This document shows positions 4,620-64,000 of a DNA stretch of 64,000 bases, piece by piece (positions within the stretch are counted from its first letter, which is position 1; each line of letters begins with the position of its first letter). The position numbers were made by a program, and so were the translations under genes. The notes beneath the pieces were generated by a model, which saw only the letters and a list, made by a program, of their open reading frames with translations, searched no databases and was not told where the DNA came from. Origin of the DNA: Thuidium tamariscinum (taxonomy: Eukaryota > Streptophyta > Bryopsida > Hypnales > Thuidiaceae); contig OX344755.2 in assembly GCA_947034885.2 (NCBI GenBank), positions 28,403,052-28,467,051 of the forward strand. The letters run 5' to 3'.

Positions 4620-5115
4620 GCTTTATACTCTGTCGCCACAGGGGCGACTGCGGGTACAGGGCGACTTCGGGTGAACAGGGCGACCGCGGGTAATGGGGGC
4701 GACGGCGCCTGCAAGGACGACCGCACGTACGAGGGCGATCGCGCGTGGAAGGGCGACCGCGGGACAGGGTGAGGAACTGCAAAAAATGACCCGCGATCGC
4801 CCCAAGCGCGGTCGCACTCCCCGAACGGGCGACCGCGCATGGACGGGTGACCACGCATGGAGGTGGCGGTTTAGGTTCTGGCACCGAAGGTCGCCCCTGA
4901 CCCGCGGTCGCCCCAAGCGCGGTCGCACTCCCCGGTCGGGCGACCGCGCATGGACGGGCGACCGCGCTTGGAGGTGTCGGGCGGCAGTTCTGTCACCCGA
5001 GGTCGCCCCAAGCGCGGTCGCACTCCCCGGACGGGCGACCGCGCATGGAGGTGGCGGGCGGCAGTTCTGGCACCCGAGGTCGCCCCTGACCCGCGGTCGC
5101 ACCTTTGCAGGTTTT
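4620..5115 (-). promoter_or_regulatory. Class A GC-rich repeat array with TATA-like box upstream of the hAT gene
   Basis: A CpG-rich minisatellite built on GGTCGC/GCGACC cores in both orientations. From about 4795 to 5100 a larger unit of roughly 100-120 bp is repeated. On the gene strand a TATAAAG box (complement of 4622-4628) sits at the gene-proximal edge, about 230 bp before the ATG at 4394. Its position and TATA box suggest a promoter. Alternatively the array is the subterminal repeat of the hAT element, since hAT transposases bind short subterminal repeats. Open frames through the array are by-products of its composition. Confidence 0.65.
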
Positions 5116-5199
5116 CAATTTTTGGAAAGCGCGGTTGCTGTACACGCGGTTGCCTTACAGGACCAGCTGGCCTGAGCAAGGTGGACAGTTATTAACCTA

Positions 5200-6840
5200 G
5201 CTGTAACAGGTATTATTTGAGAGATTCGGAGATTCCTCCTAGTTCCACATTATATCCCACTTCATTCTCATTAAAAGCAGCATCTAAATTACTATGTAGC
5301 AATAGTTACTCCAAAGTGATTTACCATTTCATGCACATAGAAGCTTTTAAAGGTATTTCCAACCCCTTCACCACCAAGCCCTATTGGCTCTTTCTCCAAG
5401 AAATCATGAACCTTCAAACCTCAATAAAAAATATCATACTTTTACTTAGGAATGTTGAGTTCTATGAGAGCTCAATTATGGAGGAGGACAACCCTCAATT
5501 TCATGATATTTCAAATGCTTAATCCCTAAAGGACTAAGAAGATACAATGTGTCATCTTCAAAGTTTTCAATGGCAATTTCTTGTAAGGGTGAAGCAAATC
5601 TCAATATGAAACAAAGGGAATGTAATATTTTTGGGATCTCAGTATTAGACTTAGATTAGTGGGAAAAAAAATGGGAAGACAAAATTTTAAAAAATGACAG
5701 TTATTCAAAAATGTATACTTGAACTTCTACCAAAACATTATGGAGATAGAGTTTCTATTAAAATTCAATGGAACCCCCCCCCTAGTACTTTAAAAAAGAA
5801 GGGAATGTAATATTTTTGAGATTTCAATATTAGACTTAGATTAGTTGAAGAAAAATGGGAAGACAAAATTGAAAAAATATGGCACTTATCCAAGAATGTG
5901 GAAATAGAAGGACATTTACAAATAAAATATTAGAAATTTAAGTTACCTTTTTAGCTCTAACATGGACCTTAATGACATTGATCTAAGCAATTAGATAGTA
6001 TCCTAAAGAGGATATCTTAGCCTCCAAAATTTATGTGGATTTAGTTGCAATAATGGATTATGTTGAATGCATCTTAAGGACAAGTATTTATTGTAAAGAT
6101 GCTTGCATTGACCAAATGATAACAATGTTGTGTACAATTTGAGAAGAACTTTACTCCAAGTCAAATGAGTAGGAGGTTTCCATAAAAATGAATCCAATCT
6201 CATGTCATAGTATTTTGTGTTTAATCCTTATTTGAAGCCTTTATGTAGGCTTCTCATGATTTAAGGGTTTAGGTAAATGGTTTTTTTTTTGCTATATAAC
6301 TTCCATTCTAAAGTTGTAATTGAAATATCAATTATATTTCTAGATAAATAACATTCCAAAGTAGAGGGACAATGGAAGTTTAGGGATAATTAAGGATTTC
6401 GGTTTTATTGAATATAATACTCCAAGAACATATAATTTAAGATCTAAAAAATGTTCAACAAAAGATCTTTAGGAATAATTAAGGGTGAAGCAAATCTCAA
6501 TATGGTAATACTAAATTATCTTTAGACTCCAAATAAATTTTTCTAAGGGGTTAAAAAATCTATATTCATCTTTTTATAAATTTGTTTCTCCCAAAACTAC
6601 GTTTGTGGCCCATGATGTTGATCATCAAGAATTGCTATAATGTAAAGATCTAACCATTGAAATGTTCTACAATTAATTCCATACATGCTAGATATAATAA
6701 TTTTTACTTTTGTACAGTTAAAATTTTAAAAAATGATAACACCTATGTGCCCAAAAATATGGAAGGATAGAATTGATTGAAATCCTCCATTGTCAAAACC
6801 GTTTTAGTCTTGTAGGGATTAAAGGAATGCAATATTACTA
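5200..6840. other. Gene-free AT-rich DNA with a diverged ~186-bp direct duplication
   Basis: No gene is supported. A segment at about 5611-5710 recurs at about 5797-5900; both contain GGGAATGTAATATTTTT followed by a TTAGACTTAGATTAG block and a GGGAAGACAAAATT block. The segment around 5520-5600 also resembles 18457-18535, so it is a dispersed repeat. Confidence 0.4.
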
Positions 6841-6844
6841 TTGC

Positions 6845-8350
6845 ATAAAAAATTTGTAGTTAATAGACACTTGAGCAGAATGCTACTTCAATGTTGCAAA
6901 ATTAAAAATTAAAAATTGAAGTTATACATATATCTTTTAGTAAATGGCAAACACCATTGTATTAGAAATGAACATTTAGACCAAAAACATTTGAGCCAGA
7001 AGGGGTGAACAATAAAAATAAGTTATACTATAGTGAAACTAATACAAATATTTGAATGCAATTCAATGGACACACTCCAAAAATGAATTTTAAGCCTTTA
7101 GGTGATTTGAATCAGGTAGTTTTGACAATTGCTATTTTTAATTCAAGTAATAGATTTTAGGAAAAAATATGAATTTAGGCACATATAATTGTAAGATCCT
7201 ATATTACACTAGTTTGAGAAGATGTGGAGGAAAGTTAACCAATTTTCTACTATGAAAATTGCCAAGATATTAACATTTGAATTTATTGTAATTCTTTTGA
7301 GGGCCTTGTGATGTATGAAAACCTAGGAAGTTGCACTTCATACAATCACATTTGTATAAAATAATTGTCGTAATGGTGTTTCTTTTCTATACCAAATTAC
7401 CAATGTTCAAAGGCAATTCATAAGATGCTTGAAATTTTTTTTAGACAAACTACAAGTGTATAACATTTTTGGAAAATATATGTCAGTACATAGGAATATA
7501 GAATGATTTCAAATAGTAAGTTGTTAAGAGTTGAATTATATAGAATTGAAAATGCGAATTCCAATGGTAATTATTATCCTGCATCTAATATTTCAATTTT
7601 TGTTATAGATTTTGAATATTGAATTAAATGAAGAACTTTACAGAATTTATTGTGCATTTGTTGATTAGAAAACTAGGAAATCCCTAACAACCCTTAATCA
7701 AAATCCCTCTTAACGATCATGACAGATGCTACTATATGAGTCTAAAACTGTGAATCCCCAAGACTATTCACCTATAGTATAGGTGTTTAAATCATAGAAA
7801 CTTTTTATAATTAGAGATTTCTAGTGTGATTATACTATACACACTTATATTATTGGTGCATATGTTATAAACACATTGAAATATTCAATAGTTGTGGGAT
7901 ACCTACTTATATCTATAATCAAGGCTTACATACTTGCATTTCTATCTTCTCATGCTAGCATTTTAGTAACAAAATCAAATTAAGAAATTCACATTTTAAA
8001 TTTATTTTGAAAATTTGTAGAGCACTTATTTCAAAGCCCAAAACTTATTGGGGTTATGCGTCTCCAATGTATGCATCTCCAATGTTTGTATCTCATTTTT
8101 TCGGTGACCAAATTTTTTAAATTGAACATATGAAAAGAGGATTGTAAGACTGTGCATGTGTTTTGTAAATTTAACACACTCGTGAAGTCGTGATCAAACA
8201 TTATAATCTGTCATCCATAAGTGATAATATTCTATTTTCTTTACCTTCATAACCTCTAATATGCACAGTTTAAATTTGTATGCTTATAATTTAAAGAAAA
8301 TTGATGAAGCATATGAAATATTATCCTATTCCTAAAAACTAAAAAGGAAT
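6845..8350 (+). repeat. Left arm of a ~1.2-kb inverted repeat (TR1)
   Basis: This region aligns with the reverse complement of 12520-13692. Landmarks in order are a TTTAGTAAATGG block, a CATTTGAGCC block, an AACTAATRCAAAT block, a TAAACACRTTGAAATATTC block and a CCATAAGTGATAATATT block. The left arm carries about 300 bp of extra sequence (roughly 7915-8215) absent from the right arm. Together the arms bracket the gene at 8717-10114, as expected of a large terminal-inverted-repeat element or an inverted duplication. Confidence 0.7.
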
Positions 8351-8716
8351 ATGAAAGTTGCATGTACAAAAATGTATTAATTGAAAGAAACATCTATTTT
8401 ATGAAATTTAGATATGGACACTTTCTTCATAAAAATTTGAAATGTCTACATATTACATATTGAGCATTTTATGGAGATGCTTTTTGAAAGATTGAATGAG
8501 CATTTTGGATGTTTAAAAAAAACCCGTCAACATGCAAACAAAGGAATATGAATTCTTTTGCATCCATACACATCAATGATAGAAATGAAACACCCCAAGT
8601 TTGCAAAATAATACGAAAAAATAATAGTAGCCTTTTTATATATAGATGTTTACAAAAGTCATAAGTCCTCCAAAAAATGCTAGCATTGCTAGCCCCCCAA
8701 AAGATCATACAACATT

Positions 8717-10114
8717 CTACTTGCTTTGTTCATCTGTCTTTAGCCTTTTCTTAGCTTCTAAGTCTTTCTTCGCCTCCTTGTAGGCACTATCCAAATTGGA
8801 TTGAAGAGGAAAATCCCACCATTTATTTTTCATGTACTCTTTCTTCAAATTCTGTGCATTGAGCAAATTCATCTTCTTCTTCTCCACTTCCCCGGCCACA
8901 TCACTTTCCAATGCGAGAGCATGGGCTAACTTCTTCTTTAGGTCCTCTGCTTCCAACTTCAATGTCTCATGTTGCCTCTCATGATCTTCAGAATCTTGTA
9001 TATCAACAATACGATCAAGAGGGGCTTTGTCCTTCATTTTCTGAAGGTCACGTAATTTTGATTGTGCACCTTCAAGAGATCTTTTTTCATTTTCCAAGCA
9101 GTCAGCTTCGATGTGACAATCTTCCTTGAGTTTAGCCAATCGTTCTTCTACAAATTTGTTAGTTGAAGAACTAGAACCTTCACCCCCTGAAACGGAGAAG
9201 TTCAGATAGAATGCTTCCAAGTTCAAGATTTGCTCATGTTGCTTGGACAATTGAATTCGTCCCGATTCAATGAGGGCTTGAAGGGTTGGAACATCATCAG
9301 AAGTATCAGTCACTGCCCCTTCCTCCAAAGTCCTTTTCTCTTCATTTGCTCTATCCAACTCTTCGAGCACACTCTTCAATTGAACTTTATAAAAGTCGTT
9401 CAATGGAATATCTTCGTTGGCCTCCACACTTGCAGCTTCAACAGATCCTTCAATTCTTGGCATCCCTTCCAATGAAGGCAATGTCAACGTGGGGCCCGCC
9501 TCCACTTCCCCCTCCTCCAAAGGCTCCAAATTAGCCAATGTCTCACCCACATGTGGCAGTCCAACATCCATCAACTCATCTTCACTACTTTCGTGATCCG
9601 ACCACACGAACTCATTGTTCGGAACTTCATTCTTGATGAAAATCTTTTTCCCTAAACCTTCACGTGGGTTTTGGGAGGGACCCGCCCTAGGAATGTCCTT
9701 GGTTGACGGTTTTTGGACAAGCTTTGCTCCCTTAATGGTGCTCCAATCCACCCTTCGTCGAAGAATAACTTCCGCGTACACCATCTCACACAGAAACAAG
9801 GGAATTTCATTCCGAGGCACACTTCGTGTCTTGTACAAGTATCGATATACTTCGATACATCTTTGTACAAATCCATCGTGAGTGCAAGCATGAAGATTTG
9901 CCATATTTGACTTCAAGTGGATTTTGTGTCGATGATAGGGGAAAAGCTTATCGATGTGGCACCATTGTACAAATGCCCTACAAGTGGTCGCGGTCCAAAA
10001 GCCTTCGATCCTCTCCCAACCTCCATGAGCCACGACATTAGAGTCCACAAGGACGTGTTGTTGTCTTTTTTGCATCTTGCCTTTGGCTTTACGGTTCCTC
10101 CGGGTGGCGTCCAT
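8717..10114 (-). CDS. WCHI/VDWST-domain coiled-coil protein (copy 1)
   Basis: A 465-residue protein from the ATG at 10114. After a short basic leader (RRNRKAKGKMQKRQQ) comes a domain of about 110 residues containing WCHIDKLFP, HRHKIH, FVQRCIEVYRYLY, YAEVILRR and VDWSTI. The same order recurs in four other genes in this window (21329, 26513, 46597, 57565). I do not recognise it as a named family. The middle is acidic and Pro/Ser-rich. The C-terminal ~200 residues are rich in Lys, Glu and Leu with heptad-like spacing, so a coiled coil is likely. This suggests a scaffold or dimerising partner rather than an enzyme, which is inference. The gene lies within the TR1 inverted repeat and has a class A array upstream. 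Confidence 0.75.
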   Translation of the reverse strand: MDATRRNRKAKGKMQKRQQHVLVDSNVVAHGGWERIEGFWTATTCRAFVQWCHIDKLFPYHRHKIHLKSNMANLHACTHDGFVQRCIEVYRYLYKTRSVPRNEIPLFLCEMVYAEVILRRRVDWSTIKGAKLVQKPSTKDIPRAGPSQNPREGLGKKIFIKNEVPNNEFVWSDHESSEDELMDVGLPHVGETLANLEPLEEGEVEAGPTLTLPSLEGMPRIEGSVEAASVEANEDIPLNDFYKVQLKSVLEELDRANEEKRTLEEGAVTDTSDDVPTLQALIESGRIQLSKQHEQILNLEAFYLNFSVSGGEGSSSSTNKFVEERLAKLKEDCHIEADCLENEKRSLEGAQSKLRDLQKMKDKAPLDRIVDIQDSEDHERQHETLKLEAEDLKKKLAHALALESDVAGEVEKKKMNLLNAQNLKKEYMKNKWWDFPLQSNLDSAYKEAKKDLEAKKRLKTDEQSK

Positions 10115-10269
10115 TGGATTGAAGTAGATGGAGGTATTAAGAAATACCAAAATGCGACAATAGCTGCCCCAATAGATGCACGAACCACACAATCACAATA
10201 AAAAAAAACCAAGTACTGGACACGCAGTCAGCCACGAGAAGCGGGTGATAGAGCAGTGTGCAGCGCTGG

Positions 10270-10575
10270 AATTGCAAGTGGGCGAATGCGGATGGGGCGA
10301 CCACTTATAAACCCGATGTCGCCTGGGGCGCGTGCGTTCCGTGCGAGGGCGACTGCGGGTGGGGCGAGTGCGGGAAGGGTGACCGCACGAGGGCGACCGC
10401 GGGTCCTTTGAAGGACCTGTTTTGCGGTCTGGGCGACCGCGCCTGGGCGAGTGCGCGAAGGGCGACCACAGGAAAGGTGACCGCGGGTCCTTCACAGCAG
10501 TGGCGACCGCGGGTCCTTTTACGAGGTCATTTATTTCTGAATTTCCCGCCTTCTGACTTGGGCGACCACAGGTTG
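10270..10575 (-). promoter_or_regulatory. Class A GC-rich array with TATA-like box upstream of copy 1
   Basis: Six exact GCGACC cores plus near variants (GCGACT, GCGAGT, GGTGACC), several inside GGGCGACCGCGGGT. On the gene strand they read ACCCGCGGTCGCCC, the same sense as at the other class A genes. A TTATAA box at about 10304-10311 lies at the gene-proximal edge, about 195 bp before the ATG. Confidence 0.65.
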
Positions 10576-10619
10576 TTCACCAAGGAAATCTGAATTTTGG
10601 ATTTCGCCCTCTGAAAAAT

Positions 10620-12520
10620 AGTTGTAGAAATGAAAAGGAAGCCGATGTGAACTAAAAAAAGGATTCATGGGAAGAAATGGTGTGTAAAAGAACAAGGAAA
10701 TGCCCATTTTTTCAAAAAATAAAAGTTTATAAAAATAAAAAGGGAAATCATATTAACTAAAGAATGCTCATTTGGAGAAAATTCCATGAGAAAATAAATA
10801 TAAAAATAACACAATCAATGAAAGGCTTGAAAGAAAAATGCATTGTAGGAATGAAAAGAAAAATCTCAGTATCAATAAAAAAAAATCATGAATTCAACTA
10901 CAATAGTGCAGTAATGACCTGAAGTATGTCAAAGCTAAATGCTCAATAATGTAATTGAATGCCTATATAAGTTAAAATGCAATGGTATACATTTCCACCA
11001 ATATTTGGTGTGTAATTTTTGAGCATAGGAAGCTGAGATTCATTTTATATAGATTAATAATGATGTCCAAAGTTGTACACCATCTAATTTGGTGGGAAAA
11101 ATATCTAACTAAAGAAATTGTTGCAAAAGTATTCTATATAAAAATAACTACCAAGTGGACTACTAAGTATTATTCAACCTTCTTTTTTGGATCCATATTG
11201 CTTACATAAAAAAATATAGAAGCATGTCTATTCTTTATTGTTTTTTTATTTAAGTTGAAGGTGACATTTGAGAGCCATTGTAAATACAAAATCACATCAT
11301 TTCTTTGTTTTCCTTACGACCCCCAATCAACATCCAAGAGCATAATAAAACATGAATTTCTTTTTTGGGTTTTAGAATATGATGATTATGGTGTGAAAGA
11401 CCTTGAATCCAAAAGCACATTAGCCTTGTTTTTGTGGGAGGTTTCTATTGGGAACCTCATTTAATTCTAAGACATATTTTTTTATTTTTTTAGAAAGTTT
11501 CCCATCATAACTTCATTAAATTCAAAAGAGCATTTTCTTTTAAGAGGTTCACATCAGAAATCTCATTTAATTATAAAACTAATATCTTAATTATTTAGTA
11601 AGGGTTTTCATTAGGAACCTTATTTAATTCAAAAACATATTTATCTTGAACCCCTTTTTTTAAAGGGTTCCCACTGAGAACTTCATTGCACTCAAAAACA
11701 CATTTTTTTGGATGTGGTTCCCATTGGAAACCTCATTTATTTCAAAAACACAATTCCCTCTTTTTTTGGCGTGGTTTACATTGCAAACCTCATTTCATAA
11801 AAAACAACAATTTCCCTCTTTTTCAAAAGAGGTTTGCATTGGGAACCTCATTCAATCCAATAATTTGTTTTATTTTATAAAAAATTTGGTTCTTGTTGTG
11901 CATAAACTCATATGCATTAAATTCTGTGATGCCTTATTTGGAATACTCATTCAAAAGATGTTAAGTGATATAACCTCACCTTTGGAATTCTCGGAAAAAA
12001 ATTAAATTTTTAAGCTATTAGTAGTTGAGGTTAGGGGTCAACTTTAAATCAACCTCTACTTAAATAACTATTTAGAGAGAACAAAACATTATTTTCTTTA
12101 GGGTGAAATCGTAGATCAAATATTGAAAGATTCCTTAGTTATTGGTCACAGGATTGATGATATCATCATTTGGAACATGAAGGGGGGGGATTTTAGTGCT
12201 CAATTTCCTTTTCTATCTAGCCTTTCGGCCCTTTTCAAGCTTGGCCGCTTTGTATATTGGATTCATCTTAATGCAATAGTTCTTCCATTTTTTCAAATAC
12301 ATATTTAATTTTATTTTTTGCAAATTCATTTCAAAAATAAAGTATTACAAAATCTAAATTCAAAGTGGAAAAACTTTAGGATCTAAATATTCTAAAACGT
12401 AGGTATTGTATATGGTATTATTGTCCAACAATATGTTATAATCTTATTAAAATATCAAGGATTATTTTGAGTTTTCTTCTATTCTAATCCTTGCCTTTAT
12501 CCTTTACAAATTAATATCAA
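10620..12520. other. Gene-free AT-rich interior of the TR1-bracketed region
   Basis: Only short AT-rich frames with no family resemblance. The one organised component is the palindromic minisatellite at 11440-11855, listed separately. I see no gene. Confidence 0.5.
11440..11855 (+). repeat. Palindrome-containing minisatellite, about eight units
   Basis: About eight diverged units of roughly 50-65 bp, each with a form of GGTTCCCATTGGGAACC followed by TCATTTAATTCAAAAACA. The GGTTCCC...GGGAACC part is an inverted repeat. Cores lie near 11444, 11500, 11550, 11605, 11668, 11719, 11773 and 11832. The function is unknown. Confidence 0.65.
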
Positions 12521-13692
12521 TCCTCTTTAGTTTTTTGAGATAGGACAAGTTCTTATACACTTTAACAATTCCTTAAAATTATAAGCGTACAAGTTCTAAC
12601 TAGGTAAATGCAGAGATTATCAAGGTAAAGAAAATATAATATTATCACTTATGGAATTATGGATCAAGAGAGTATAAATAGGTATGCCACAACTATAGAA
12701 TATTTCAACGTGTTTATAACATATACCCTATAATATAAGTGTGTATAACATAAGTGTACTAGAAATCTCTTTTCTATGATCCAGACACGTATATTATAAG
12801 TGAATCGTCTTCTAGTCTTAGGGACTCACATTCTTAGGCTCATATAGTAGCATCCGTCACGAGTTTTAAGAGGGATTTTGGATGCAATAGATCTCCCATT
12901 TGTTCAAAAAATAAAAAATAAAAAATTGTACAATGGTTTGTAAAGTTCTTCATTTAATTCAATATTCAAAATTTATTACAATAATTAAAATATAATGTGT
13001 AGGATAATTCTTTCAAATTTGAACCATTGAAATTAGCATTTTCAATTCTAGAATTGAACTACTAACAACTTAGTCTTTGAAATCATTCAATATTCCTATC
13101 TACTTGCCATGTTTTCCCAAAATGTTATACACTTCCAAATGGTTAAAAAGTTCTCAAGTATATTATCAATTGCCTCTAAACATTGGTATAAATAAGCACC
13201 ACCATTTACGGCAATTGTTTTATATAAATGTGATTGTATGAAGGGCAACTTCCAGATTTTCTTACATGTCATGGCCCTCAAAAGAATTTCAACCAATTCA
13301 AATGTTAATAGCAAGGTAATTCTCATGGTAGAAAAATTTGAAATTTCCTCCACCACTTTTCAAACTAGTATAATATAGGATACTACAACTATATGTGCCT
13401 CAATTCATTTTTTTCCTCAAAATCTACTACTTGTATTCAAAAGAGCAATTATGGATAAAACAAAATTCAAATCACTTAGAGGTTTAAAATTCATAGTTGG
13501 AGAATGTTCATTGAATTGCATTCAAAGATTTGCATTAGTTTGGCAAAGGTATAACCTCTTCTAATTCTTCACTCCATTTGGCTCAAATGCTTTGTTCTAT
13601 TAAATGTTAGATTTTAGTACAATGAGATTTTCCATTTACTAAAAAACTAGGATACAATACATTAAACTATTCCCTAATGACAAATTTTTAGT
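12520..13692 (-). repeat. Right arm of the TR1 inverted repeat
   Basis: Reverse-complement partner of 6845-8350. Homology stops at about 13692, where class A GGTCGC-type sequence begins. The abrupt boundary suggests that the arm end is an element end or that the array is the next cassette's start. Confidence 0.7.
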
Positions 13693-13699
13693 TGTCATG

Positions 13700-14500: not shown

Positions 14501-14676
14501 CTCCGGGACCGCATTCGCCATCTTGCCTCGGCCTTGCGCATTGTCTTTCACCCGCCTTGGAGTGGCTGAATGCATGCCCGTGGGCCGGGGTCCTTTATTC
14601 GATTTTGGGGGGATTTTTTTGTCATTTTGATCTATAAAATTCCTCAAAGCTACGGTGAAGCTTTCGATTACACGCA

Positions 14677-17718: not shown

Positions 17719-17719
17719 T

Positions 17720-50505: not shown

Positions 50506-50509
50506 TTTT

Positions 50510-53340: not shown

Positions 53341-53524
53341 CGTGATCAAATCAATGATAAGAGTTTAAAAACTCTTGATTTCAAGCACAATGCACAAAAG
53401 ATATACAAAAAAAGGGCAACAAGTTGACCCTAAATCCCACTCCTAACTTCCCTTAGAAAGGAGCCAATGGAGGATTAACCACCAAGCTCTCCGCTCTCTC
53501 TTGTGAAACACAAGGGGGAAGATA

Positions 53525-53795
53525 AGAATGCGGTTGCGGACGGGCCGTCCGCCTATCTTATACCTTGCGGACGGACCGACCCGTCCGCAACCTCGTCGGG
53601 GCCGTCCGATCTGTCCGCCTCGCCTCGTCAGGGCCGTCCGATCGCGCTGGCCGTCCGATCGGGGCCGTCCGCGTTGCCTCGTTAGGGCCGTCCGATCGCA
53701 CTGGCCGTCCGACCGGGGCCGTCCGCCTCGTCGTCCTCGGGGCCGTCCTTGGGGCCGTCCGATCACTGTGGCCGTCCGATCGGACGGCCCCGGGG
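53525..53795 (-). promoter_or_regulatory. Class B GC-rich array with TATA box upstream of the right kinase-like gene
   Basis: About a dozen CCGTCCG cores on the plus strand, in GGCCGTCCGATCG and GGGGCCGTCCG contexts, so the gene strand reads CGGACGGCCCC. A TATAAG box (complement of about 53558-53563) is at the gene-proximal end, about 220 bp before the ATG. Confidence 0.65.
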
Positions 53796-53799
53796 CATT

Positions 53800-55160: not shown

Positions 55161-55165
55161 CAAAC

Positions 55166-55603
55166 CTACAAGCCGCGACCTTTCATGCCACACCATTTCA
55201 CCCAAACTTGTTCAAAGTCAATGGCTTCTATAGGAATTCTTGCCACTGCAACTCGAATTTCTGCTTCCAAAGTCTCCAATACTAAACTAGAATGTAAATT
55301 AGACTCAATATAATTTTGAGTAGAAAATGCCCTCTCACAAGAATCTGTGCTACCAGGAATTACAAGAATACTTTGCCACAGCTTGGACATGTGAGGCTAC
55401 CTTCCAATATAGTCCAAATTGGAAGAGTACACTATAATTGCTTGGTGCATTTTCAAACCACCACATGAAATTTGAAGAGTACCAAAGATGATCGATGGTT
55501 GGCATGGATTCAACTCCTGTGGAGTCTTGGAACTGAATTTTACCACCTCGAGAAACGTCCAAGAAATGTGCCACAAATTTCGTATCTGCATCAAACTCCT
55601 CAT
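55166..55603 (-). pseudogene. Frameshifted hAT dimerisation-domain fragment
   Basis: One minus-strand frame (55166-55390) has SILVIPGSTDSCERAFSTQNYIES, a hAT C-terminal dimerisation motif, followed by LETLEAEIRVAVAR. The preceding residues (WFENAPSNYSVLFQFGLYW) are in another frame at 55350-55574, so there is at least one frameshift near 55390. It belongs to a different hAT lineage from the two larger transposases, which have CERNWS or unseen C-termini. Nothing of the catalytic core remains nearby. Confidence 0.65.
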
Positions 55604-55619
55604 TATTTTCTAGTAATCC

Positions 55620-57000
55620 CTTATTTAAACATTTATAATCTTCTCAAAAATTGAAGATTGGAAAAAAATCATCATCCAATATTATTTGGAAAATTATTTT
55701 AGAATTGATGATGTACAAATCAAAGTTGTAGACTTTGAATTTGAGATTCCGTTTGCATATTAGTATATTACCTATACCACTATTGTCACCATTCTCTTTT
55801 TTTAAAAATAAAAACATATATATAATTACCTTTTCATACATTAATGCTGTATTGGATATTTGATCCATTAATACCAATTTTTGAAAGCAAAAATCTACAG
55901 TTCAAATTCCAATGTTTGAGCTAAGGACTTTCAATTTGTGAACAAATGGATAGTGTAATATAGATAAGACCTAGACATCACGGTAGATGGGGTCTTTGGC
56001 TCTTGGTGGATGGAGTCAGGTAAGACAAGAGCTTACACGGTGAAGGACATCCGGTTAAATAGGTGAGCGGTTTAAGGTGCCTCAGTAATTAAGGTTTTGA
56101 CAAACAGACAAACATGATTGCGTCAAATAAGATTGAAGTGTATAGGGTTGGTATATATGGGGTTGGGGTACAAATACTTTAGGAGGTTTGTTTGGATATA
56201 ACTAATGTGTTTTACATCCCTTGGGGGCATGAGTGCCAATAGTCATAGTGAAACAAATTTGCCAAAACTTTGCATGGGCAAGTAAAATTTCCAAAAAATT
56301 TCATATATGCTCTATATTATGTATTTATATGAGACCCTCTGGGTACAATTGTACGAACAGTGGCTAAACATGTGTATTGTAGAGCTAGTGAAGTCAAACA
56401 TGAATGACTTCAAATTACCTTCTATCCAACAATGTCTTTTGTCAAACATAAGTTAGAGGACATTGTGGACTACGTAGTAAAATATTGGCTGTTGTAAATC
56501 CTATAGTTCCAACTAATCCTTGAAATTTTATTTATTTTGCTTATTGCTCATTTTTAGAGTTAGCTTGGTAAAAAACAAAAACAAAAAGTATTAATAAAAT
56601 GCTTGAAGGGATTCCCTATAACGATGAAAATTTAGTTAGAATAGACTAAGAGTTGCTCAATATGTACATGTAAAGTTCAAAATCATTCTATTTTGATTAG
56701 TCACATGAGTACATGACAAGATAAAAGTACTGCATTCGAAAGCAAATTCATATATGTGTTGTTGACTTGTTGTGTCTGTCTTCTACATTATTGGATATTC
56801 ACTTTAATCATTTACATAATGATGATATTTGGCATACAAATTTCTTTTTCAATAGAATGTCATGAAATATGAAAATTGCCACTAAACAATAAACCCTAAA
56901 CCCTACGAACCCTACGAACCCTAAACCCTAAACCCTAAACCCTTGACTTTGAGAAAGTCTCAGAAATATAAAAAAATTGCACATATTACCATTGCTTGCT
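55620..57000. other. Gene-free AT-rich DNA with an interstitial telomere-like tract
   Basis: No gene. A CCCTAAA/CCCTACGAA tract at 56889-56942 is listed separately. Confidence 0.45.
56889..56942 (-). repeat. Interstitial telomere-like repeat
   Basis: CCCTAAA occurs several times, with two CCCTACGAA variants inside the tract. It matches the Arabidopsis-type plant telomere repeat and supports a plant origin. Confidence 0.85.
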
Positions 57001-57104
57001 TTAAATTCCTTCTATAATTTTACAAGAACTAAATTTAAATAACTTGAACATTGGATCCCTATCCTGAATTAGTGAATTCCTCATTGCGCGCTGTTTGCTT
57101 TGCT

Positions 57105-57425
57105 GGCGGACTTCGAATCCGAGGACACACGCACAGGAGAATCCTAGGCTTAAACGCGAGTTTACAGAGCCATCGGACGCGCGGACGGCGCACGGCGCCT
57201 CCGCACCTGCGGACGGCAACTGCGGACGGGAGGACCGCTACTGCGGACGGCGGACTAGGTTTGGGCGTGCGGACGGGAGCTTCGGCGGCGCTTCTAGGGT
57301 CGAGAGCGGACGGCGGCGGACTGTCCGCCCTCGTGGCCACTTCGCGTCGTTCGGGCGGACGGTCGGTGCCAACCCCAGTTAGGTTCGGGGTCGGACGGGT
57401 ATAAGGGCGGACGGTGGACGGATTT
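57105..57425 (+). promoter_or_regulatory. Class B GC-rich array with TATA box upstream of the 1105-residue RING gene
   Basis: Many GCGGACGG cores in the gene's sense, with some CGTGCGGACGGGA variants. GTATAAGG at about 57400 is followed by GCGGACGGTGGACGG. The ATG at 57565 is about 165 bp on. Confidence 0.65.
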
Positions 57426-57564
57426 CTTTCACTCCTCTCCATTATTGGGTTCAACCTTGTCGGATGTTCTACTGTTGCTTCATTGTGCCAGTTGTATCCT
57501 ACGAGGTGGAGAGTTGGGTGATCAAACTGATTTTTCATTTCCCGACAATGGTGGACTCAAAGTC

Positions 57565-60500
57565 ATGGCAAGTGAGGGTGAAGAACGTGGTGGGGGAATA
57601 AATCCAGCGGGTGGTGACAATCGAAGGCATAAGCCAAAGGGCGCCAGTCACGAATTACATTATGAGATTTTGGATGACCCAAACATCAAAGCGGAAAACG
57701 GATGGGAGGATGAGGCAGCACCGTATTGGTCTTCAAAAATGTGCAAAAAATACGTGAAAATGTATCACATTGACAAGTTGTGGCCTAGGGAGGCCCATGA
57801 ACTTCATACACGTGGATTTTTTTGCAAACCCACCAACTGCAACAACGCGCATTTTGTGCATCGCGCTTTGGAGGTTTGGCGGGCCCTCTTTGGAAAGAAA
57901 GCAATGAGTAAAGGGTACATAAACTACAGCTTGGCTTCTATGGTGTATGCAGAATTGATATTGGAACACAAGGTGGATTGGAGCACGTATCCGACGACAG
58001 CACAAACTCCATTTGTACAAGAAATGAATGGAAAAGACATTCCCGATTTGTACAATCCTCAAGGAGGGCCAAGTGAGGTACCGAAGCCCAAAAGAGTATT
58101 AAAAAATACTAGAAAAATTGAAACAAAAGTCTCAGAGGTACCAAGTGATGGACCACGCTTGCAGCCTAGTGAGCCTACACACACTTTGAGGCCAATGGAA
58201 GATACTGAAGGTGAAGGTGTGGAAGGAGAAGTGTTTGCAACTCCTCCTACAGATTTAATATGTACACCAAATGTTACGACGGTGGCTGAACAGGGCATTC
58301 TTGAAGATATTCAAAGTGGGAAGAAAGAAGGTGGGCCCCCATTGGCTCGATGTGAAGGTACTGAAGATACGGAAGAGGTAGGCGAGGGAGATGTTGCTGA
58401 GGCCAATGCTACAATTCATGATATTATTGACAGTAATGCTCTCGACATCTTCGGGCTAAACCCTAAACCATCATGTTTGAGCAAACCGAGCGTTTCCAGC
58501 CCCGTACAGAGCGCCAGAATTGAAGCAGCTACCGCCAAAAAAAATGGAGAGGTGTCTCAGGGAAAAGGAAAAGAAGTAGTCATCGATGTTGAAGTCATCC
58601 CTAGCCAATACCCGCATTTGTCCACATTGAACACATCACAATTGGAGGCTCTTTCGAACATGCCGAATGCCGCAGAGCTGGAACGGTTGTTGGAGGGTTC
58701 AGTTATGTTTGGGTCTCACCTTCTTGACCTAAACCGGTCAAAAGAGACAAGTGAGGCCACCACAAGCATTGCAACCCAAGGTGAAGCCAATCGTCACAGT
58801 TGGGCAACTGTTGCTGAAATCCAAGTGACATTGGCAACTCTAGGTCGATTTGTAGCTGAAGTATCTTCGCAACTTACAGAGGTGGCACAGGAGTTTGCAA
58901 AATTGTCACCTGAATTGTTGGCAAGTGCATTGACGTTTCATAAGTTCACCGAGTCCTTGTTACCGTTTTTGGACGAGCGCTTCGAGGACAAGCGCCAATT
59001 GGTGGCCTTCTTGGAAGAGAATACAAAACTGCTGGCCTTGCAGAAAGAATTGAAGGGAACCTCAAACGAAATGGTAGAGCAATTGAGGACTTCTAAGAAT
59101 ACGGCACAATTTGAAGTTGCAACTGTGAAATGGCAAAGTGATCGTATTAAAGATTTGGAGTCAGAAGTTGAGAAATTGAAGGACGTGATCAAAAAAGGTG
59201 AGTTCACCGAAGTTAAGGAAGGAGATGGAGCTAAGCATTTTAGTGGCGATGAGAAAAAAAAGATACAGGAAGTGACACCTCTAGTGGCCATTGAAAATCG
59301 CAAAACTTCATTTCAAGATGCTTCCATTCAAACAGAATGCCATGAAGTTGATGAATTGAAGCAGAAAGTGGAGAAGCTCACCGAAGAAAACGCGTCTTTG
59401 CAGAGTGAATTGCAACGACTAGAGCATGTTCTTCGATTGGATGACTCCCTTCCAAAGAGTACCAAAGACGATCGATGGTTGGCATGGATTCAAAAACTAG
59501 AAGACAAACCAACTGTAGTTTCGCGAGCAATGAAAGGGCTTCTCAAATTGGCTGGAAAATCGGATGAGCAACAGCAAATAGTAGAATCTTCACTGATGAG
59601 TATGAGGAAGAGGTTTGAAACACATCCAAAGGGGACTACAGAAATCACATGTTGGGGAGACATGGACGCGATGTTCGAGCGGTTGAACCACACAAAGAAA
59701 GAAGAATCACCCCACATCAATTGGGCCTTGGAGGTAGAAGAAGGTTGGGTTCCGTACAACACTCTTTCGGCACACATCAAGGACAATGAGAAGACAGTGG
59801 TGCATGCTTCTCACACTTCTCGAGGGATCTTGGAAGGTAAATGCAGCATTTGTCAAGGTCCATTTGGTCCCGAGGGAGCCCTAACTATGGGCCAATGTCG
59901 TCACACTTTCCATGTGACGTGCATAATCAAAGCCTCACTTGTTCGCTCGGTTTGTCCGGAGTGTCGTTCTCCTTTGAGTTCAAGGTTTTACGAAATGGTT
60001 GGGACCTTGGAATGTATGCCCCCTAGTCACGAATACAATCGATGGACCCTTCCACTTGATCAAGCCCCGTTTTACTTCCAAAATTATATGCATTGGGGAA
60101 AACCTCTCACGTGGGATTCATTGGAAGAGAAGCATGGGTTGTACGAAGAGGCAATGGTGCCGCTAGATCCCTTTGTGTGGATGACCCAAGATCGACACGT
60201 GGAATTGCGAGCAAGGGGTATTGAAGATCCCGAAGCTCGCGAATTGTTTTGTCGCGGCATGGGTGGGCATTGGAGCATAGACCATCACAAGTTCTTTCGA
60301 TTTCCAGAGAAGGAAGTGAACAAAGGACCAGATGGCAATTGGGTGGATGTGGAGCATACAAAAGAGTTGCAAGAGCGATACGGGGCGTACAATCACACAT
60401 TGATAGGGAGGGCCCTCTTCCTGTCAAAGTTGGAAGAAGCTACGCAGGTTCGAGCTCTTGTAGAGTTAGACGGGGATTCCAACTCCTCACAGTCAATTGT

Positions 60501-60882
60501 GGAAGTGGCAGGGGCTTTTGACAGGAGGATGAGCGAGGCCATAATGTCTTTTCGAAAATTTTTAGTGGGAGGAGATGGCCCCGGCCCGCACTGGTTTTCC
60601 GTTGGAGATGTCAATGTAACACTGAACTTGATGGTAGCTTCAGTAGATGATGCCTTGGAAGCATTAAAGGCACATGAAGTGGATCTGCCTCAGAAGCGAA
60701 AGAATAAGCGGAGGGTGGAAGATGAGGATGACTTCTCTCCAGAAACAAAAAGACAATTCAGTGCTGTTGATATGGCAGTGGCTTCGAGAGGGTCCACTGG
60801 CGACGGAAGCCCCGGTCCTCACACTCGCCGTACAAGTGCAAGACTTAGGGATAGAGAGGGTCCATCTCGTGTTACACCGTAG
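57565..60882 (+). CDS. WCHI/VDWST-coiled-coil-RING-H2 protein (intact, 1105 residues)
   Basis: Start chosen at the ATG at 57565; the frame extends 40 codons upstream only with a TTG start. Domains in order: WCHI/VDWST (about 40-150; YWSSKMCKKYVKMYHIDKLWP, FVHRALEVWRALF, VDWSTY), a long disordered acidic linker, coiled coils (about 490-680, e.g. DELKQKVEKLTEENASLQSEL), a conserved STKDDRWLAWIQ segment (632-643), and a RING-H2 finger (about 760-800, CSIC x13 CRHTFHVTC x10 CPEC, all eight ligands present). A C-terminal region of about 300 residues ends in a basic KRKNKRR stretch. RING-H2 proteins usually recruit E2 enzymes to ubiquitinate targets. The coiled coil and the shared N-terminal domain suggest it can pair with its paralogues here (inference). 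A class B array lies upstream and TR2 follows about 650 bp after the stop. Confidence 0.85.
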   Translation: MASEGEERGGGINPAGGDNRRHKPKGASHELHYEILDDPNIKAENGWEDEAAPYWSSKMCKKYVKMYHIDKLWPREAHELHTRGFFCKPTNCNNAHFVHRALEVWRALFGKKAMSKGYINYSLASMVYAELILEHKVDWSTYPTTAQTPFVQEMNGKDIPDLYNPQGGPSEVPKPKRVLKNTRKIETKVSEVPSDGPRLQPSEPTHTLRPMEDTEGEGVEGEVFATPPTDLICTPNVTTVAEQGILEDIQSGKKEGGPPLARCEGTEDTEEVGEGDVAEANATIHDIIDSNALDIFGLNPKPSCLSKPSVSSPVQSARIEAATAKKNGEVSQGKGKEVVIDVEVIPSQYPHLSTLNTSQLEALSNMPNAAELERLLEGSVMFGSHLLDLNRSKETSEATTSIATQGEANRHSWATVAEIQVTLATLGRFVAEVSSQLTEVAQEFAKLSPELLASALTFHKFTESLLPFLDERFEDKRQLVAFLEENTKLLALQKELKGTSNEMVEQLRTSKNTAQFEVATVKWQSDRIKDLESEVEKLKDVIKKGEFTEVKEGDGAKHFSGDEKKKIQEVTPLVAIENRKTSFQDASIQTECHEVDELKQKVEKLTEENASLQSELQRLEHVLRLDDSLPKSTKDDRWLAWIQKLEDKPTVVSRAMKGLLKLAGKSDEQQQIVESSLMSMRKRFETHPKGTTEITCWGDMDAMFERLNHTKKEESPHINWALEVEEGWVPYNTLSAHIKDNEKTVVHASHTSRGILEGKCSICQGPFGPEGALTMGQCRHTFHVTCIIKASLVRSVCPECRSPLSSRFYEMVGTLECMPPSHEYNRWTLPLDQAPFYFQNYMHWGKPLTWDSLEEKHGLYEEAMVPLDPFVWMTQDRHVELRARGIEDPEARELFCRGMGGHWSIDHHKFFRFPEKEVNKGPDGNWVDVEHTKELQERYGAYNHTLIGRALFLSKLEEATQVRALVELDGDSNSSQSIVEVAGAFDRRMSEAIMSFRKFLVGGDGPGPHWFSVGDVNVTLNLMVASVDDALEALKAHEVDLPQKRKNKRRVEDEDDFSPETKRQFSAVDMAVASRGSTGDGSPGPHTRRTSARLRDREGPSRVTP

Positions 60883-61534
60883 GGTATTCGTGAAAAGATT
60901 TAGTAGAAGTGGATCTTTTATTAGTTGTTAGATATTATATTACGGAGGACTTGTTTTAACTTTGAATCTTTCGGAGATTCATTGCAAATCATTCATAGTA
61001 GCTATAGTATGGTTTGTATTTTTTTTATCAATACAAAAATAATTGTAAAATACAGAGTTGCAAATGTGTATATATATTCAAGAGTTTTATTTTAGTTGAA
61101 GTCTGACATGTACCATCATATGATCAATTGATCATATATGAAGATGTTTTTGTTTGATGATGCAAAAGGCTAATTTTAATTCTAGAAGAGAATGGGATAT
61201 GTGAATGAAGGTAGGAGCCATGCAGGAAAAAAAATAAAATTACTATGTTCACTGTAGAACTTCATAAATTCATTTTTGATCATTCCATATTTTTTTCCAA
61301 ATGCTTTTGAAATTACCATGATCTTAAAGAGTTTAAAGAAACCAAGTTCAATTTAGTCTACAAGAAAGTCTTTTGTGATTTGTTGTCTCTAAAACAAAGT
61401 TTAAGATGTTTGAAGTCCAGTTGTAAATTTGTAATAACAATTTAAGTATAATTGAAAGCCCTTAAAGACCCAACTGGGTTTTTTGGAACATAGGAATATC
61501 GAACAACTCATTATGAATGGGTTTCTTTTTGGGT
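60883..61534. other. Probable 3' untranslated and spacer region
   Basis: AT-rich DNA between the RING gene stop and TR2. No frame of interest. Confidence 0.4.
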
Positions 61535-62275
61535 TTTTCTTTCAGATTTTCACACAAGTTGTATCCAATGTGGTGGAAATTTCATGAAGTTTGACCCTAA
61601 TATGAGCATTCAAAGTTGGAAAACAATGTTTTTTTGAACTTGAGTTTGCAAATGCAAATGACTTTGTCCTCCATTTCTGTAATTTTTTTGCACTACAGAC
61701 CTTGAATTTAAACTTTTTTCTATTGAGAAATTGAAGTAACAGCTCAGGAAAACAAATTCAGCAACAAAAGTGTGTTTTTTCATTCTTTAAAAAATTGTCA
61801 AGTACATGTAGGTCCAAGATTGAAAGAGAAAGTAAATTGCAAAGATCTCATACATTGAATTGAAACACTATAATCTGAATGGTGAAATTGTTTTGGCAAG
61901 CAAAAACAACCTTGCCCAACAATTTTTTATTGAAAATTGTGGAAATTGCATTCACAAGTGAATCCTAAATTATTTTTTTTAAAAACATGCTTACATTGTC
62001 TAAAAAACAAGATTGTTCATGACTTTCACATCAGTAATCCAAATGGAATGAATCAAAGCTTCACTTGTAGTCTTGTAGACAAAAATAAAATCAATTAGAA
62101 AAAAAAATTATTTTTTTAATTCTGAAGTTTTTGATGATTTTTTTCTTCCCGGCGACATGAAAATGATATTGAAGATGGCATAACTTTTGCTCACGGTCAC
62201 CAATTGGAAAAGAATAATATTCCCACAGAGCTAATCAAGTTTTCTATCTGAGTTATGTGAAAATTTCTAGCGAAT
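61535..62275 (+). repeat. TR2 repeat, 3' of the RING gene
   Basis: It matches 47950-48645 (CATTCAAAGTTGGAAAACAA, TAGGTCCAAGATTGAAAGAG and GAATCAAAGCTTCACTTGTA blocks) and the complement of 50510-51365, including the inner CCCGGCGA...GGTCACCAATTG part. Its sense relative to the preceding gene agrees with the other copies. Confidence 0.75.
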
Positions 62276-62349
62276 TCGTTCAAAATTGAAGTGACAAGTA
62301 ACTGCCCAAATTCTTGAAGTCCCCCAAGTGCACTCTTGGTCCTTTGGGA

Positions 62350-62565
62350 TGTAGGCCGTCCGCCTCGTGGGGCCGTCCACCTCGTGGTGGCTGTCCGCTA
62401 GACCCGTCCGCCTCTTGGTGGGCATCCGAGGGGGGTCCGTCCGCGACCGCTCGCCGTCCGCCGCTCGGAGTACCCTGTCGAGCCGTCCGCAGTTTGGTCC
62501 GCAGTTCGGTCCGCTGTTTGGTCCGCAGTGTCAATCGGGATTGTCTCCCGTCCGTTGCAACGGTC
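62350..62565 (+). promoter_or_regulatory. Class B GC-rich array upstream of the right hAT gene
   Basis: CCGTCCGC and TGTCCGC cores, then four GGTCCGCAGTTTGGTCCGC-like units near 62480-62530. AGTATAAG at about 62592 follows the array. The ATG at 62856 is about 263 bp on. Confidence 0.6.
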
Positions 62566-62855
62566 ACGAAGAGCAACCTTAGAACTAAGGAGTATAAGTT
62601 TCCAGAAATTGTCATTCGCAAGCACTCCTGTAAAGCTGAACGCTAAGATTTCCAAGGGCTAGGCGCTGCAATTTCGGTTGTGTCCCTTGCTTGGTAATGC
62701 ATAGTTCAGTGGTCAGGGGGGCTTTGGTTTCCAAGGCTTCTTTCAAACTATATCGGTTACTTTATTGACGATTTTTATTCCTGCGGAGATCTTCACCCTT
62801 TTTGTGGTTACACTCGGAATTTGAAGTTCCAAAGACGCACTTAAAATTCATCATT

Positions 62856-64000
62856 ATGAGCAAGGATTGGTCTTCTTGGTATGGCGCCCCTTCAGTTGGG
62901 AAGGTACAATGCAAAGCCTGCAACCTAGTGTTTGCCAAAAAAACATGCCGTATGTTTAGCCATCTTGGTTATGAAGGTGCATCGGGGTCTCGTGATCGAG
63001 GAATCAGTCTATGTCCACAACTCACATCCCAAGTTCAGAAGCTATTTTGTCAATGCAAGGGGGTAATCCCACGAAGAGGTGAAAACAAGAATTTGGGTGG
63101 AAACGGGACATTGGAGGCCACGGTTGAAAATGATGCAAGAAATGAGAGACCTTCGACATCGCCAATACGTCTTACACCGGAAGATTCTTGTACAATACCA
63201 AAAGAGACCCTAAACCACGTGTCTTCTGGAGCACTTGCCAGTACTCAAGCATCAGATGAAGGAGACACAGGGGTAGGATCAACTAGTAGGCCTTTGGTGC
63301 AGCGGCGGATAGGAGATGGCTTCGAAGAAGCGAGTAGACGGAAATTGCATGCAGTGTGGGCTAATTTTTTTTATGCTGCGAACATACCATTTTCGGTGGC
63401 ACGGAATGCAGCATTTAAAGAAGCGGTGAAGAAAACGGCTGAGTTTCACAAACCCTATACCCCACCGTCATATCATGAATTACGACATAAGTTGCTTGAT
63501 CAAGCGAAGGCAGACATTAAAGTGAATATGAAGAAGCGAACAGAAGACAGCATCAGGAAGTTTGGAGCAACATTGTCTATTGATGGGTGGACTTCGGCGG
63601 CAAATCGTCCTTTGGTAAATGCAATGCTCGTGTCTTCTGCGGGCGAGCAATTCCTGGGATCGGAGGATACAACAGGAAAAGAGAAGAATGCCGCCTATTT
63701 AGCCTCTATATTGGAAAAATTCATAGAAGAAGTGGGTCCTCACAAAATAGTACAAATAAGCGCAGATAATGCGCCTGTGAATGAAGCCGCATTCAACTTG
63801 ATATCTCCGAAGTACCTTCATATATTTTACCAGGGTTGCGTGGTCCATGCCCTGAATTTGTTATTGAAAGATTGGGGCAACGAACGGTGGATTGAGGAGG
63901 TCATGGGCAATGCCCGTAACGTAGTGAAATTCTTCAAAAAGAGGCACATGCCTCTTGCAATATTTCGAAGGTACTCGCCGGACTGCATGTTGTTGATGGC
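62856..64000 (+). CDS. hAT-family transposase with BED-like finger and DUF659 core (right copy, truncated by the window)
   Basis: The ATG at 62856 opens a frame that stays open for 381 codons to the window edge. It aligns in order with the hAT gene at 2160-4394: KDWSSW near the start; a CKAC...HLGYEG...C finger where the left copy has CLFC...HFGYGG...C; VWANFFYAANIPFSVARNAAF (left copy ATWASFFYEANIAFNVTRHPAF); SIDGWTSAANRPLVNAML; SADNAP; and GCVVHALNLLLKDWG. Both catalytic-type Asp positions and the C-x2-H signature are present. It has diverged too far from the left copy to be a recent duplicate. The C-terminal dimerisation part lies beyond the window. Confidence 0.85.
   Translation, partial: MSKDWSSWYGAPSVGKVQCKACNLVFAKKTCRMFSHLGYEGASGSRDRGISLCPQLTSQVQKLFCQCKGVIPRRGENKNLGGNGTLEATVENDARNERPSTSPIRLTPEDSCTIPKETLNHVSSGALASTQASDEGDTGVGSTSRPLVQRRIGDGFEEASRRKLHAVWANFFYAANIPFSVARNAAFKEAVKKTAEFHKPYTPPSYHELRHKLLDQAKADIKVNMKKRTEDSIRKFGATLSIDGWTSAANRPLVNAMLVSSAGEQFLGSEDTTGKEKNAAYLASILEKFIEEVGPHKIVQISADNAPVNEAAFNLISPKYLHIFYQGCVVHALNLLLKDWGNERWIEEVMGNARNVVKFFKKRHMPLAIFRRYSPDCMLLM

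What the first reader, a model, noticed from the sequence alone, without database searches (positions are those of the whole stretch)
4620..62856. Nine unrelated genes share one promoter-like architecture built on short GC-rich repeat arrays
Arrays at 4620, 10270, 13700, 20770, 27340 (GGTCGC core) and 45975, 53525, 57105, 62350 (CCGTCCG core) each sit just upstream of a gene. The genes belong to different families: hAT transposase, kinase-like, WCHI/VDWST coiled-coil and RING. A common upstream module on different coding regions suggests a shared regulator or shared mobility ends. hAT transposases are known to bind short subterminal repeats, so the transposases encoded here might recognise the arrays. 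That last step is inference.
Basis: partly seen in the sequence, partly recalled or inferred. Interest (0 to 1): 0.92.

Follow-up and report, generated by a model that had tools for sequence, protein, structure and literature searches.

The report
Giant jumping genes with private promoters
The nine repeat arrays belong to two very large, recently mobile hAT transposons in a plant-like genome; each transposon marks its ends and its genes with one repeated DNA word of its own, which looks like a private control code shared by jumping and gene expression.

Summary
Apart from A/T-rich words, two motif families dominate a 6-mer scan, and each array lies upstream of a gene. But these are not nine unrelated genes. 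The five GGTCGC arrays lie in one 29,057-bp hAT transposon (A, window -1264..27792) and the four CCGTCCG arrays in another of 22,220 bp (B, 45969..68188). Both have short terminal inverted repeats and 8-bp target duplications. Of 22 A-ended elements checked, 21 have perfect 8-bp duplications, so moves were recent. A and B carry diverged versions of one gene set: transposase, kinase, WCHI proteins and RING (27-43% identity). Arrays also sit near both ends of each element; that at A's left end has no long open frame beside it. A third element (D, 12 kb read) has homologous genes under a third motif; sampled transposase loci give a fourth.

Best reading: arrays are subterminal transposase-binding repeats reused as upstream activating sequences, read by an element-encoded protein, most likely the transposase's BED-like zinc finger. 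Structure and mobility are shown; binding and transcription are inferred. No sign of protection from methylation was found.

The parts
1..27792 (.). Element A: giant hAT transposon of 29,057 bp. It begins at window -1264 (C7:28401787), left of the window.
   Evidence: Sharp ends against the C1 copy 7134478-7163927 (98.1% and 96.6% identity over the two stretches compared), 13-bp perfect TIR, 8-bp TSD
27780..27792 (-). Right TIR of A (CAGAACAACCCTG), followed by TSD TTGCATGC at 27793-27800. The left TIR is at -1264..-1252, TSD copy at -1272..-1265.
2160..4409 (-). A hAT transposase (DUF659, hAT dimerisation region), 749 aa in this copy; 36 of 61 listed genomic matches show a frame of 1129-1134 aa (the tool reads through stops), 31 of 61 have no stop in the matched stretch
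   Evidence: Pfam
1014..1988 (-). ORF of 324 aa in the same frame downstream, probably the C-terminal part of the longer transposase; two in-frame stops lie between (after 749 and 790 aa)
4632..5095 (.). GGTCGC array upstream of the A transposase, TATAAAGC at -281 from the start used
8717..10192 (-). A WCHI-type protein 1 (start codon uncertain)
10280..10562 (.). GGTCGC array upstream of WCHI 1
13704..13833 (.). Minor GGTCGC group (4 motifs) further upstream of the kinase
14265..14477 (.). Main GGTCGC array upstream of the A kinase
14677..16332 (+). A protein-kinase-like gene (551 aa)
   Evidence: Pfam Pkinase E 3.2e-12
20783..20998 (.). GGTCGC array upstream of WCHI 2
21329..22825 (+). A WCHI-type protein 2
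25127..27187 (-). A WCHI 3 (26513-27187), middle ORF (25790-26332) and RING ORF (25127-25768); WCHI 3 and RING match the N-terminal and RING parts of the single B gene at 57445-60882
   Evidence: (RING below the Pfam cut-off)
27392..27610 (.). GGTCGC array: upstream of WCHI 3/RING and subterminal at A's right end (about 183-400 bp from the end)
45969..64000 (.). Element B: giant hAT transposon of 22,220 bp, ending at window 68188. TSD ACGTGGAC at 45961-45968 and 68189-68196. Inserted in an NIF-phosphatase ORF.
   Evidence: Sharp ends against C1:18300882-18323299
45983..46415 (.). CGTCCG array: subterminal at B's left end (14-446 bp) and upstream of B WCHI
46597..47676 (+). B WCHI-type protein
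51853..53349 (-). B kinase-like gene (498 aa); 87 genomic matches
   Evidence: Pkinase E 9e-06, below the Pfam cut-off
53536..53781 (.). CGTCCG array upstream of B kinase
57106..57408 (.). CGTCCG array upstream of B WCHI+RING
57445..60882 (+). B WCHI+RING protein (likely start at 57565)
62357..62549 (.). CGTCCG array upstream of B transposase
62856..64000 (+). B hAT transposase, continuing to 66125 in two ORFs; then an SAD/SRA-domain frame (66630-67277, -) and the right-end array (67929-68136), all outside the window

Best explanation
The arrays are the cis-regulatory modules of two giant, recently mobile hAT transposons. Each element carries a transposase, kinase, WCHI and RING genes. SHOWN: each element moves as a unit (TIRs, 8-bp target duplications, dispersed copies); within an element one short motif is repeated near both ends and upstream of the recognised genes; related elements with homologous genes use different motifs. 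INFERRED: the arrays began as subterminal transposase-binding repeats, as in other hAT elements, and now also act as upstream activating sequences next to TATA boxes. INFERRED: one element-encoded DNA-binding protein, most likely the BED-like zinc finger of the transposase, reads them all, so that excision and expression of the element's genes form a private regulon that differs between element families.
For: Elements: sharp ends, TIRs and TSDs; 19 of 20 further A-ended elements have perfect 8-bp TSDs and one has 6 of 8, against 0 of 380 mismatched pairings with at most 1 mismatch; 61 transposase matches at 91-100% identity, only the best 60 of 702 candidates being scored. Ends: arrays lie 189-452 and 183-400 bp from A's ends and 14-446 and 52-259 bp from B's. 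Promoters: 12 of 15 array-gene pairs have TATAWR near the gene-proximal array edge, expected 25% per window, binomial 1.3e-5 (the pattern was widened after a first look). Motif by element: 15 arrays of A, B and D, mean similarity 0.54 within and 0.12 between elements, 0 of 20,000 permutations, nearest neighbour in the same element for 15 of 15; a scan of A and B without choosing arrays finds, A/T-rich words aside, the element's own words clustered at those sites. Homologous genes under different motifs. Zinc finger: A and A2 share the motif, and their finger is 87-89% identical against 65-67% for the rest.
Against: No transcript, methylation or binding data exist here. The arrays were delimited by their motif, so part of the within-element likeness is built in. 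The finger test gains support only from A against A2: between A and B or D the finger is no more diverged than the rest, and for Cp the excess is weak (p 0.08). Pfam gives no BED hit, so the label BED is mine. One of 12 sampled transposases (L059) has no array. CpG transitions are not rarer in arrays (23 of 389) than elsewhere (30 of 739), p 0.18. A's kinase and WCHI 2 and B's SRA lack TATAWR at the array edge. D's arrays are mixtures of GTCCGCGCCCTG and GTCCCCGCCCT-type units. Motifs could stay alike within an element by conversion or slippage without any reader.
Confidence: 0.57

Rival explanations
1. The arrays are targets of an element-encoded anti-silencing factor other than the transposase (for example a WCHI protein), as VANC proteins act on VANDAL elements in Arabidopsis; motif and factor change together.
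For: [quoted passage not shown] All motifs here hold CpG; element B carries an SAD/SRA frame; WCHI proteins hit no Pfam family above its cut-off (the WCHI+RING protein passes only for RING-type families) and no solved relative was found.
Against: No VANC-like domain by Pfam in the 13 of 14 element ORFs scanned. CpG transitions in arrays are not reduced. The SRA frame is broken by two stops in this copy. Arrays reach the element ends, which favours an end-binding protein.
Confidence: 0.2
2. The arrays are subterminal repeats and spacer arrays spread and homogenised inside each element by slippage and gene conversion, with no regulatory role.
For: Units are imperfect tandem repeats of varying period; within-element homogeneity is what conversion would give. 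A 10.4-kb element with A's ends has a large internal array with no known gene beside it.
Against: The gene-side edges lie 107-750 bp from the starts used and 12 of 15 have a TATA-like box there; elsewhere in A and B no group of more than two motif copies was found; the layout recurs in divergent elements.
Confidence: 0.13
3. A host transcription factor reads the arrays, and elements drifted to different host factors.
For: Array plus TATA is ordinary promoter anatomy; B, D and Cp share the 6-mer GTCCGC, so one host factor with relaxed specificity is possible.
Against: It does not explain the same motif near both ends, above all at A's left end with no long frame, nor conservation of the finger between A and A2.
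Confidence: 0.1
4. An endogenous virus with virus-type common promoters.
For: Long uninterrupted reading frames, each with its own promoter, in a large dispersed unit.
Against: hAT TIRs and TSDs; no capsid, polymerase or packaging domain among the proteins scanned; WCHI alignment against viral contigs confirmed nothing.
Confidence: 0.03

Closest known systems
hAT superfamily DNA transposons (Ac, Tam3, Hermes, Tol2)
   Same: DUF659 and hAT dimerisation domains, short CAGGG-type TIR, 8-bp TSD, short repeats near both ends. In Hermes the BED domain binds subterminal repeats of the left end (PMC10368747, passages read).
   Different: 22-29 kb with several genes. Ac is 4.6 kb (PMC3260210, start of abstract in the listing). 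The repeats also occur inside, upstream of the genes.
VANDAL / VANC anti-silencing system of Arabidopsis
   Same: Several genes per element; short family-specific motifs in tandem-repeat form in non-coding parts; motif differs between related families (PMC5735166, passages read).
   Different: Here the element is hAT, no VANC domain was found, arrays sit at promoter edges and ends, and methylation was not measured.
ToxhAT of fungi
   Same: hAT-type element carrying extra genes between TIRs (PMC6737239, passages read).
   Different: 14 kb, 74-bp TIRs; no element-wide promoter arrays in the passages read.
Giant KDZ, EnSpm and Sola transposons of Ectocarpus; giant TE review
   Same: DNA transposons up to about 30 kb with extra genes (PMC12477816, passages read).
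   Different: Other superfamilies, in a brown alga. The word hAT was found once in that paper and not in the 2019 review of giant transposons (PMC6431247, passages).
Maize En/Spm TnpA (recalled, no call)
   Same: A transposon protein that binds subterminal repeats and also regulates the element's own promoter
   Different: CACTA superfamily, one promoter region

Membership tests
hAT superfamily transposon | Transposase with hAT domains | tested here: met
   A: DUF659 2.1e-30 and Dimer_Tnp_hAT 3.3e-07; B: 5.1e-35 and 4.3e-08
hAT superfamily transposon | 8-bp target site duplication | tested here: met
   A: 21 of 22 perfect, 1 with 6 of 8; B: 2 of 2 copies, read by eye from the printed ends
hAT superfamily transposon | Short terminal inverted repeats | tested here: met
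   A: 13 bp perfect; B: about 10 bp with one mismatch
hAT superfamily transposon | N-terminal BED zinc finger | tested here: inconclusive
   Cysteine and histidine pattern visible in the alignment, but no Pfam BED hit
hAT superfamily transposon | Subterminal repeats bound by the transposase | not testable with these tools
   Repeats present near all four ends; binding not tested
VANDAL/VANC system | VANC protein and MULE transposase | tested here: not met
   hAT domains, no VANC or MULE domain in the 13 of 14 element ORFs scanned with Pfam; A's middle ORF was not scanned
VANDAL/VANC system | Motif-dependent loss of methylation | not testable with these tools
   Indirect CpG-transition test shows no protection
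Endogenous virus | Virus hallmark genes | tested here: inconclusive
   None in the proteins scanned, but only long ORFs were scanned

The most novel reading that the evidence does not exclude
Each family of giant hAT element has a private regulatory language: one protein, the transposase, both cuts at the ends and switches on a regulon of the element's genes by reading the same word, and word and reader change together when families split, insulating each family from the others in the same nucleus.
Probability: 0.35. Interest if true: 0.87.

Novelty: new variant of a known kind. Interest (0 to 1): 0.76.

Why it matters
Well-known hAT elements are a few kilobases with one gene (Ac 4.6 kb). Here recently mobile 22-29 kb hAT elements carry a conserved gene set, and a change of motif at promoters and both ends separates related families. 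That is a natural series of matched reader and DNA-word pairs, so it can show how a DNA-binding protein and dozens of its sites change together, and whether transposons escape host silencing or each other by changing regulatory language. The kinase, WCHI and RING genes are kept in lineages only about 27-43% identical, so they probably serve the element, and their job is unknown.

Tried and rejected

Uninformative: the pattern was badly chosen (its gap excludes the usual overlap; 4 matches, control 1) and was replaced. The L012 row was mis-framed and was redone. The first TATA patterns (15 of 23) missed TATAAG or TATATA; the widened one is post hoc, and I then kept one transposase copy per family (15 array-gene pairs instead of 23). 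One search printed only 6-mers with four or more G/C; one search repeats it without that filter.
Full report
WHAT WAS CLAIMED. Nine short GC-rich arrays, five with a GGTCGC core and four with CCGTCCG, each upstream of a gene from different families; perhaps a shared regulator or transposon ends.

The arrays are at the stated coordinates. A scan of all 6-mers for local clusters puts variants of these two motifs first among words with four or more G/C; without that filter only A/T-rich words form more clusters. Genome-wide, triple-motif patterns occur 3248 times for GGTCGC (controls 89) and 3248 times for CCGTCCG (controls 18). Two GGTCGC directly side by side are not enriched (16 against 30).

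THEY ARE TWO TRANSPOSONS. The window is C7:28403052-28467051 of a 363-Mb genome in 19 contigs. In the listed places the arrays recur in the same order and spacing in dispersed blocks. Comparing the window and its flanks with one such block on C1 gave sharp ends. Element A runs from window -1264 to 27792, 29,057 bp; it is 98.1% and 96.6% identical to the C1 copy over the two stretches compared (5.5 and 3.9 kb), with the perfect 13-bp inverted repeat CAGGGTTGTTCTG and 8-bp duplications TTGCATGC on C7 and CGCACTGG on C1. Element B runs from 45969 to 68188, 22,220 bp, with imperfect inverted repeats (T/C)AGGG(A/T)TGACG and duplications ACGTGGAC on C7 and GATAGGAA on C1. B sits inside a reading frame for an NIF-type phosphatase (Pfam E 6e-14) of another multigene unit; with the flanks set together the frame runs on for about 70 residues past the target site. 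Eight-base duplications, CAGGG-type ends and the transposase domains DUF659 and Dimer_Tnp_hAT place both in the hAT superfamily.

RECENT MOVEMENT. The A end 13-mer occurs 270 times (controls 26). Among the first 100 listed ends I counted by hand 27 facing pairs: 13 at 26.9-31 kb, 10 at 10.4-12.5 kb, 3 at 51.3-51.6 kb and 1 at 63.8 kb. I fetched both ends of 20 of these 27: 19 have perfect 8-bp duplications and one has 6 of 8; of 380 mismatched pairings none has at most one mismatch. With the window copy and C1:7134478 that is 21 of 22. One 51.6-kb case is B nested in A (C2: B ends 13395187 and 13417702 within A ends 13392366 and 13443958). The A transposase has 61 matches at 91-100% identity (best 60 of 702 candidates scored); 31 of 61 have no stop in the matched stretch, and 36 of 61 rows list a frame of 1129-1134 aa, which the tool counts through stops. 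The window copy has in-frame stops after 749 and 790 aa. The B kinase has 87 matches. B's left end occurs 133 times and its right end 40 times, controls 0; on C1-C7, where both lists are complete, 16 of 26 right ends pair with a left end at 22.2-22.9 kb, counted by hand.

THE SAME GENE SET TWICE. A and B share the transposase (35% and 43% over its two parts), kinase (27%), WCHI domains (27-38%) and RING region (30%). The WCHI domain is my name: about 100 residues with W, C-H-I, L-F-P and V-D-W-S-T signatures, five copies in the two elements; no Pfam family above its cut-off in this region, no PDB sequence and no informative fold match (the model is of low to middling confidence). B also has an SAD/SRA frame, just under the Pfam cut-off, with two stops in this copy.

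WHERE THE ARRAYS LIE. A: -1075..-812, 4632-5095, 10280-10562, 13704-13833 with 14265-14477, 20783-20998, 27392-27610. B: 45983-46415, 53536-53781, 57106-57408, 62357-62549, 67929-68136. Thus each element has arrays within 500 bp of both ends and upstream of each recognised gene; elsewhere in A and B no group of more than two copies was found. The array at A's left end has no frame of 120 aa or more near it, so a pure promoter role does not easily explain it. At the gene side of 12 of 15 arrays lies a TATAWR box (expected 25% per window, binomial 1.3e-5). The pattern was widened after a first look and D's kinase and WCHI share one array, so the p-value flatters. A's kinase and WCHI 2 have GGGTACTTAAG at that place instead (seen by eye).

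MORE FAMILIES, MORE WORDS. I sampled 12 of 150 listed DUF659 places, chosen by hand for varied frame length. 11 of 12 have a dense array upstream of the transposase; L059 has none. By motif: A2 (L054, 71% to A) GGTCGC; six Cp loci GGCCGTC-type (38-39% to A); four D loci GTCCGCGCCCTG-type (39-41% to A). A 12-kb stretch of one D element has kinase, WCHI, RING and transposase genes with AGGGCG-type words at three array sites; the units vary between sites, the densest-cluster scan flags two of the three, and the gene of the middle site is unknown. Genome patterns: D 472 against 0; Cp-type 2821 against 7, of which some are B kinase arrays. Over the 15 arrays of A, B and D, mean 6-mer similarity is 0.54 within and 0.12 between elements, 0 of 20,000 permutations reach this, and each array's nearest neighbour is in its own element. 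I had delimited these arrays by their motifs, so part of this is built in; the scan, which chose nothing, agrees for A and B. The motifs are not wholly unrelated: B, D and Cp share GTCCGC, and the B kinase array is rich in GGCCGT. A gradual drift of one ancestral word is therefore as likely as replacement.

READER. In the N-terminal transposase alignment A and A2 (same word) have a finger region 87-89% identical against 65-67% for the rest (Fisher p 0.003 and 0.0004), whereas A against Cp is 27% and 41% (p 0.08), A against B 31% and 35% (p 0.63), A against D 40% and 40% (p 1.0). This fits selection on the finger to keep the word, but it is one comparison, and the finger was not recognised by Pfam. 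Hermes BED domains bind subterminal repeats (PMC10368747, passages). VANC proteins of Arabidopsis VANDAL elements give the precedent of family-specific words in tandem-repeat form (PMC5735166, passages).

RESULTS AGAINST. CpG transitions between copies are not rarer in arrays (23 of 389) than elsewhere (30 of 739; p 0.18), so there is no mark of long-term demethylation. Of 16 distinct GGTCGC array loci among the first 30 places, 8 have an element gene homologue within about 1.5 kb, 1 is the left end of an A copy, 2 lie between A2 genes without a recognised gene, and 5 are unassigned, 3 of them a different GGTCGCTGGGGAG repeat. A 10.4-kb element with A's ends (L105, 7 kb read) has GGTCGC near its end and a large internal array but only a kinase remnant: probably a non-autonomous relative, in which that array has no known gene.

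MECHANISM. Most likely the arrays are subterminal transposase-binding repeats that also serve as upstream activating sequences for the genes of the element, read by the transposase's finger. Shown: anatomy, mobility, motif-by-element rule.

PRINT STATUS. Searches for giant or cargo-bearing hAT elements in plants and mosses showed none like this among the titles and abstract starts listed; one search listed 15 of 109 papers and 15 of 26. The library holds open-licence PubMed Central papers only; subscription papers and preprints were not searchable. ToxhAT (14 kb, fungi) is the nearest hAT with extra genes that I found.

Noticed in passing
window 40247-45968 and 68197-75107 (outside): A third multigene unit, interrupted by element B, with several long ORFs of unknown family, an NIF-type phosphatase, and repeated palindromes of the form TTAGGTCGA-TCGACCTAA near 40247, 42006, 43550 and 44729.
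   Followed up: partly
window 38632-38785: A different GC-rich array (19-20 bp units, GCGGGTATCGTGAGGTGGG) that may be the promoter or end array of yet another element.
   Followed up: no
window 6935-8299 and 12569-13644: Long imperfect inverted arms (pieces of 28-253 bp, 78-93% complementary) inside element A flanking its first WCHI gene; similar AT-rich arms in B (48053-48611, 50697-51262, 61570-62215).
   Followed up: no
window 29491-30465 and 34389-36712: Satellite of 177-bp units (about 5.5 and 13 copies) between elements A and B.
   Followed up: no
window 56882-56943: Internal telomere-like CCCTAAA repeats inside element B just upstream of its WCHI+RING array.
   Followed up: no
L059 (C11:4510662-4513660): The strongest DUF659 match listed has no array upstream but lies directly beside a kinase homologue (35% to A's kinase): maybe an old family that lost or never had arrays.
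   Followed up: partly
G000, e.g. C1:3115018, 6451408, 7234456: B's left end occurs 133 times but its right end only 40 times; some left ends lie next to short double-facing CCGTCCG arrays, which look like small non-autonomous elements.
   Followed up: partly
C11 of the genome: The 17.5-Mb contig C11 holds several of the more diverged transposase and kinase copies, which would suit a sex chromosome (guess).
   Followed up: no
window -3357..-1951 (L041): A 468-aa ORF left of A whose C-terminus looks like a MULE-type transposase zinc region (by eye, not scanned).
   Followed up: no
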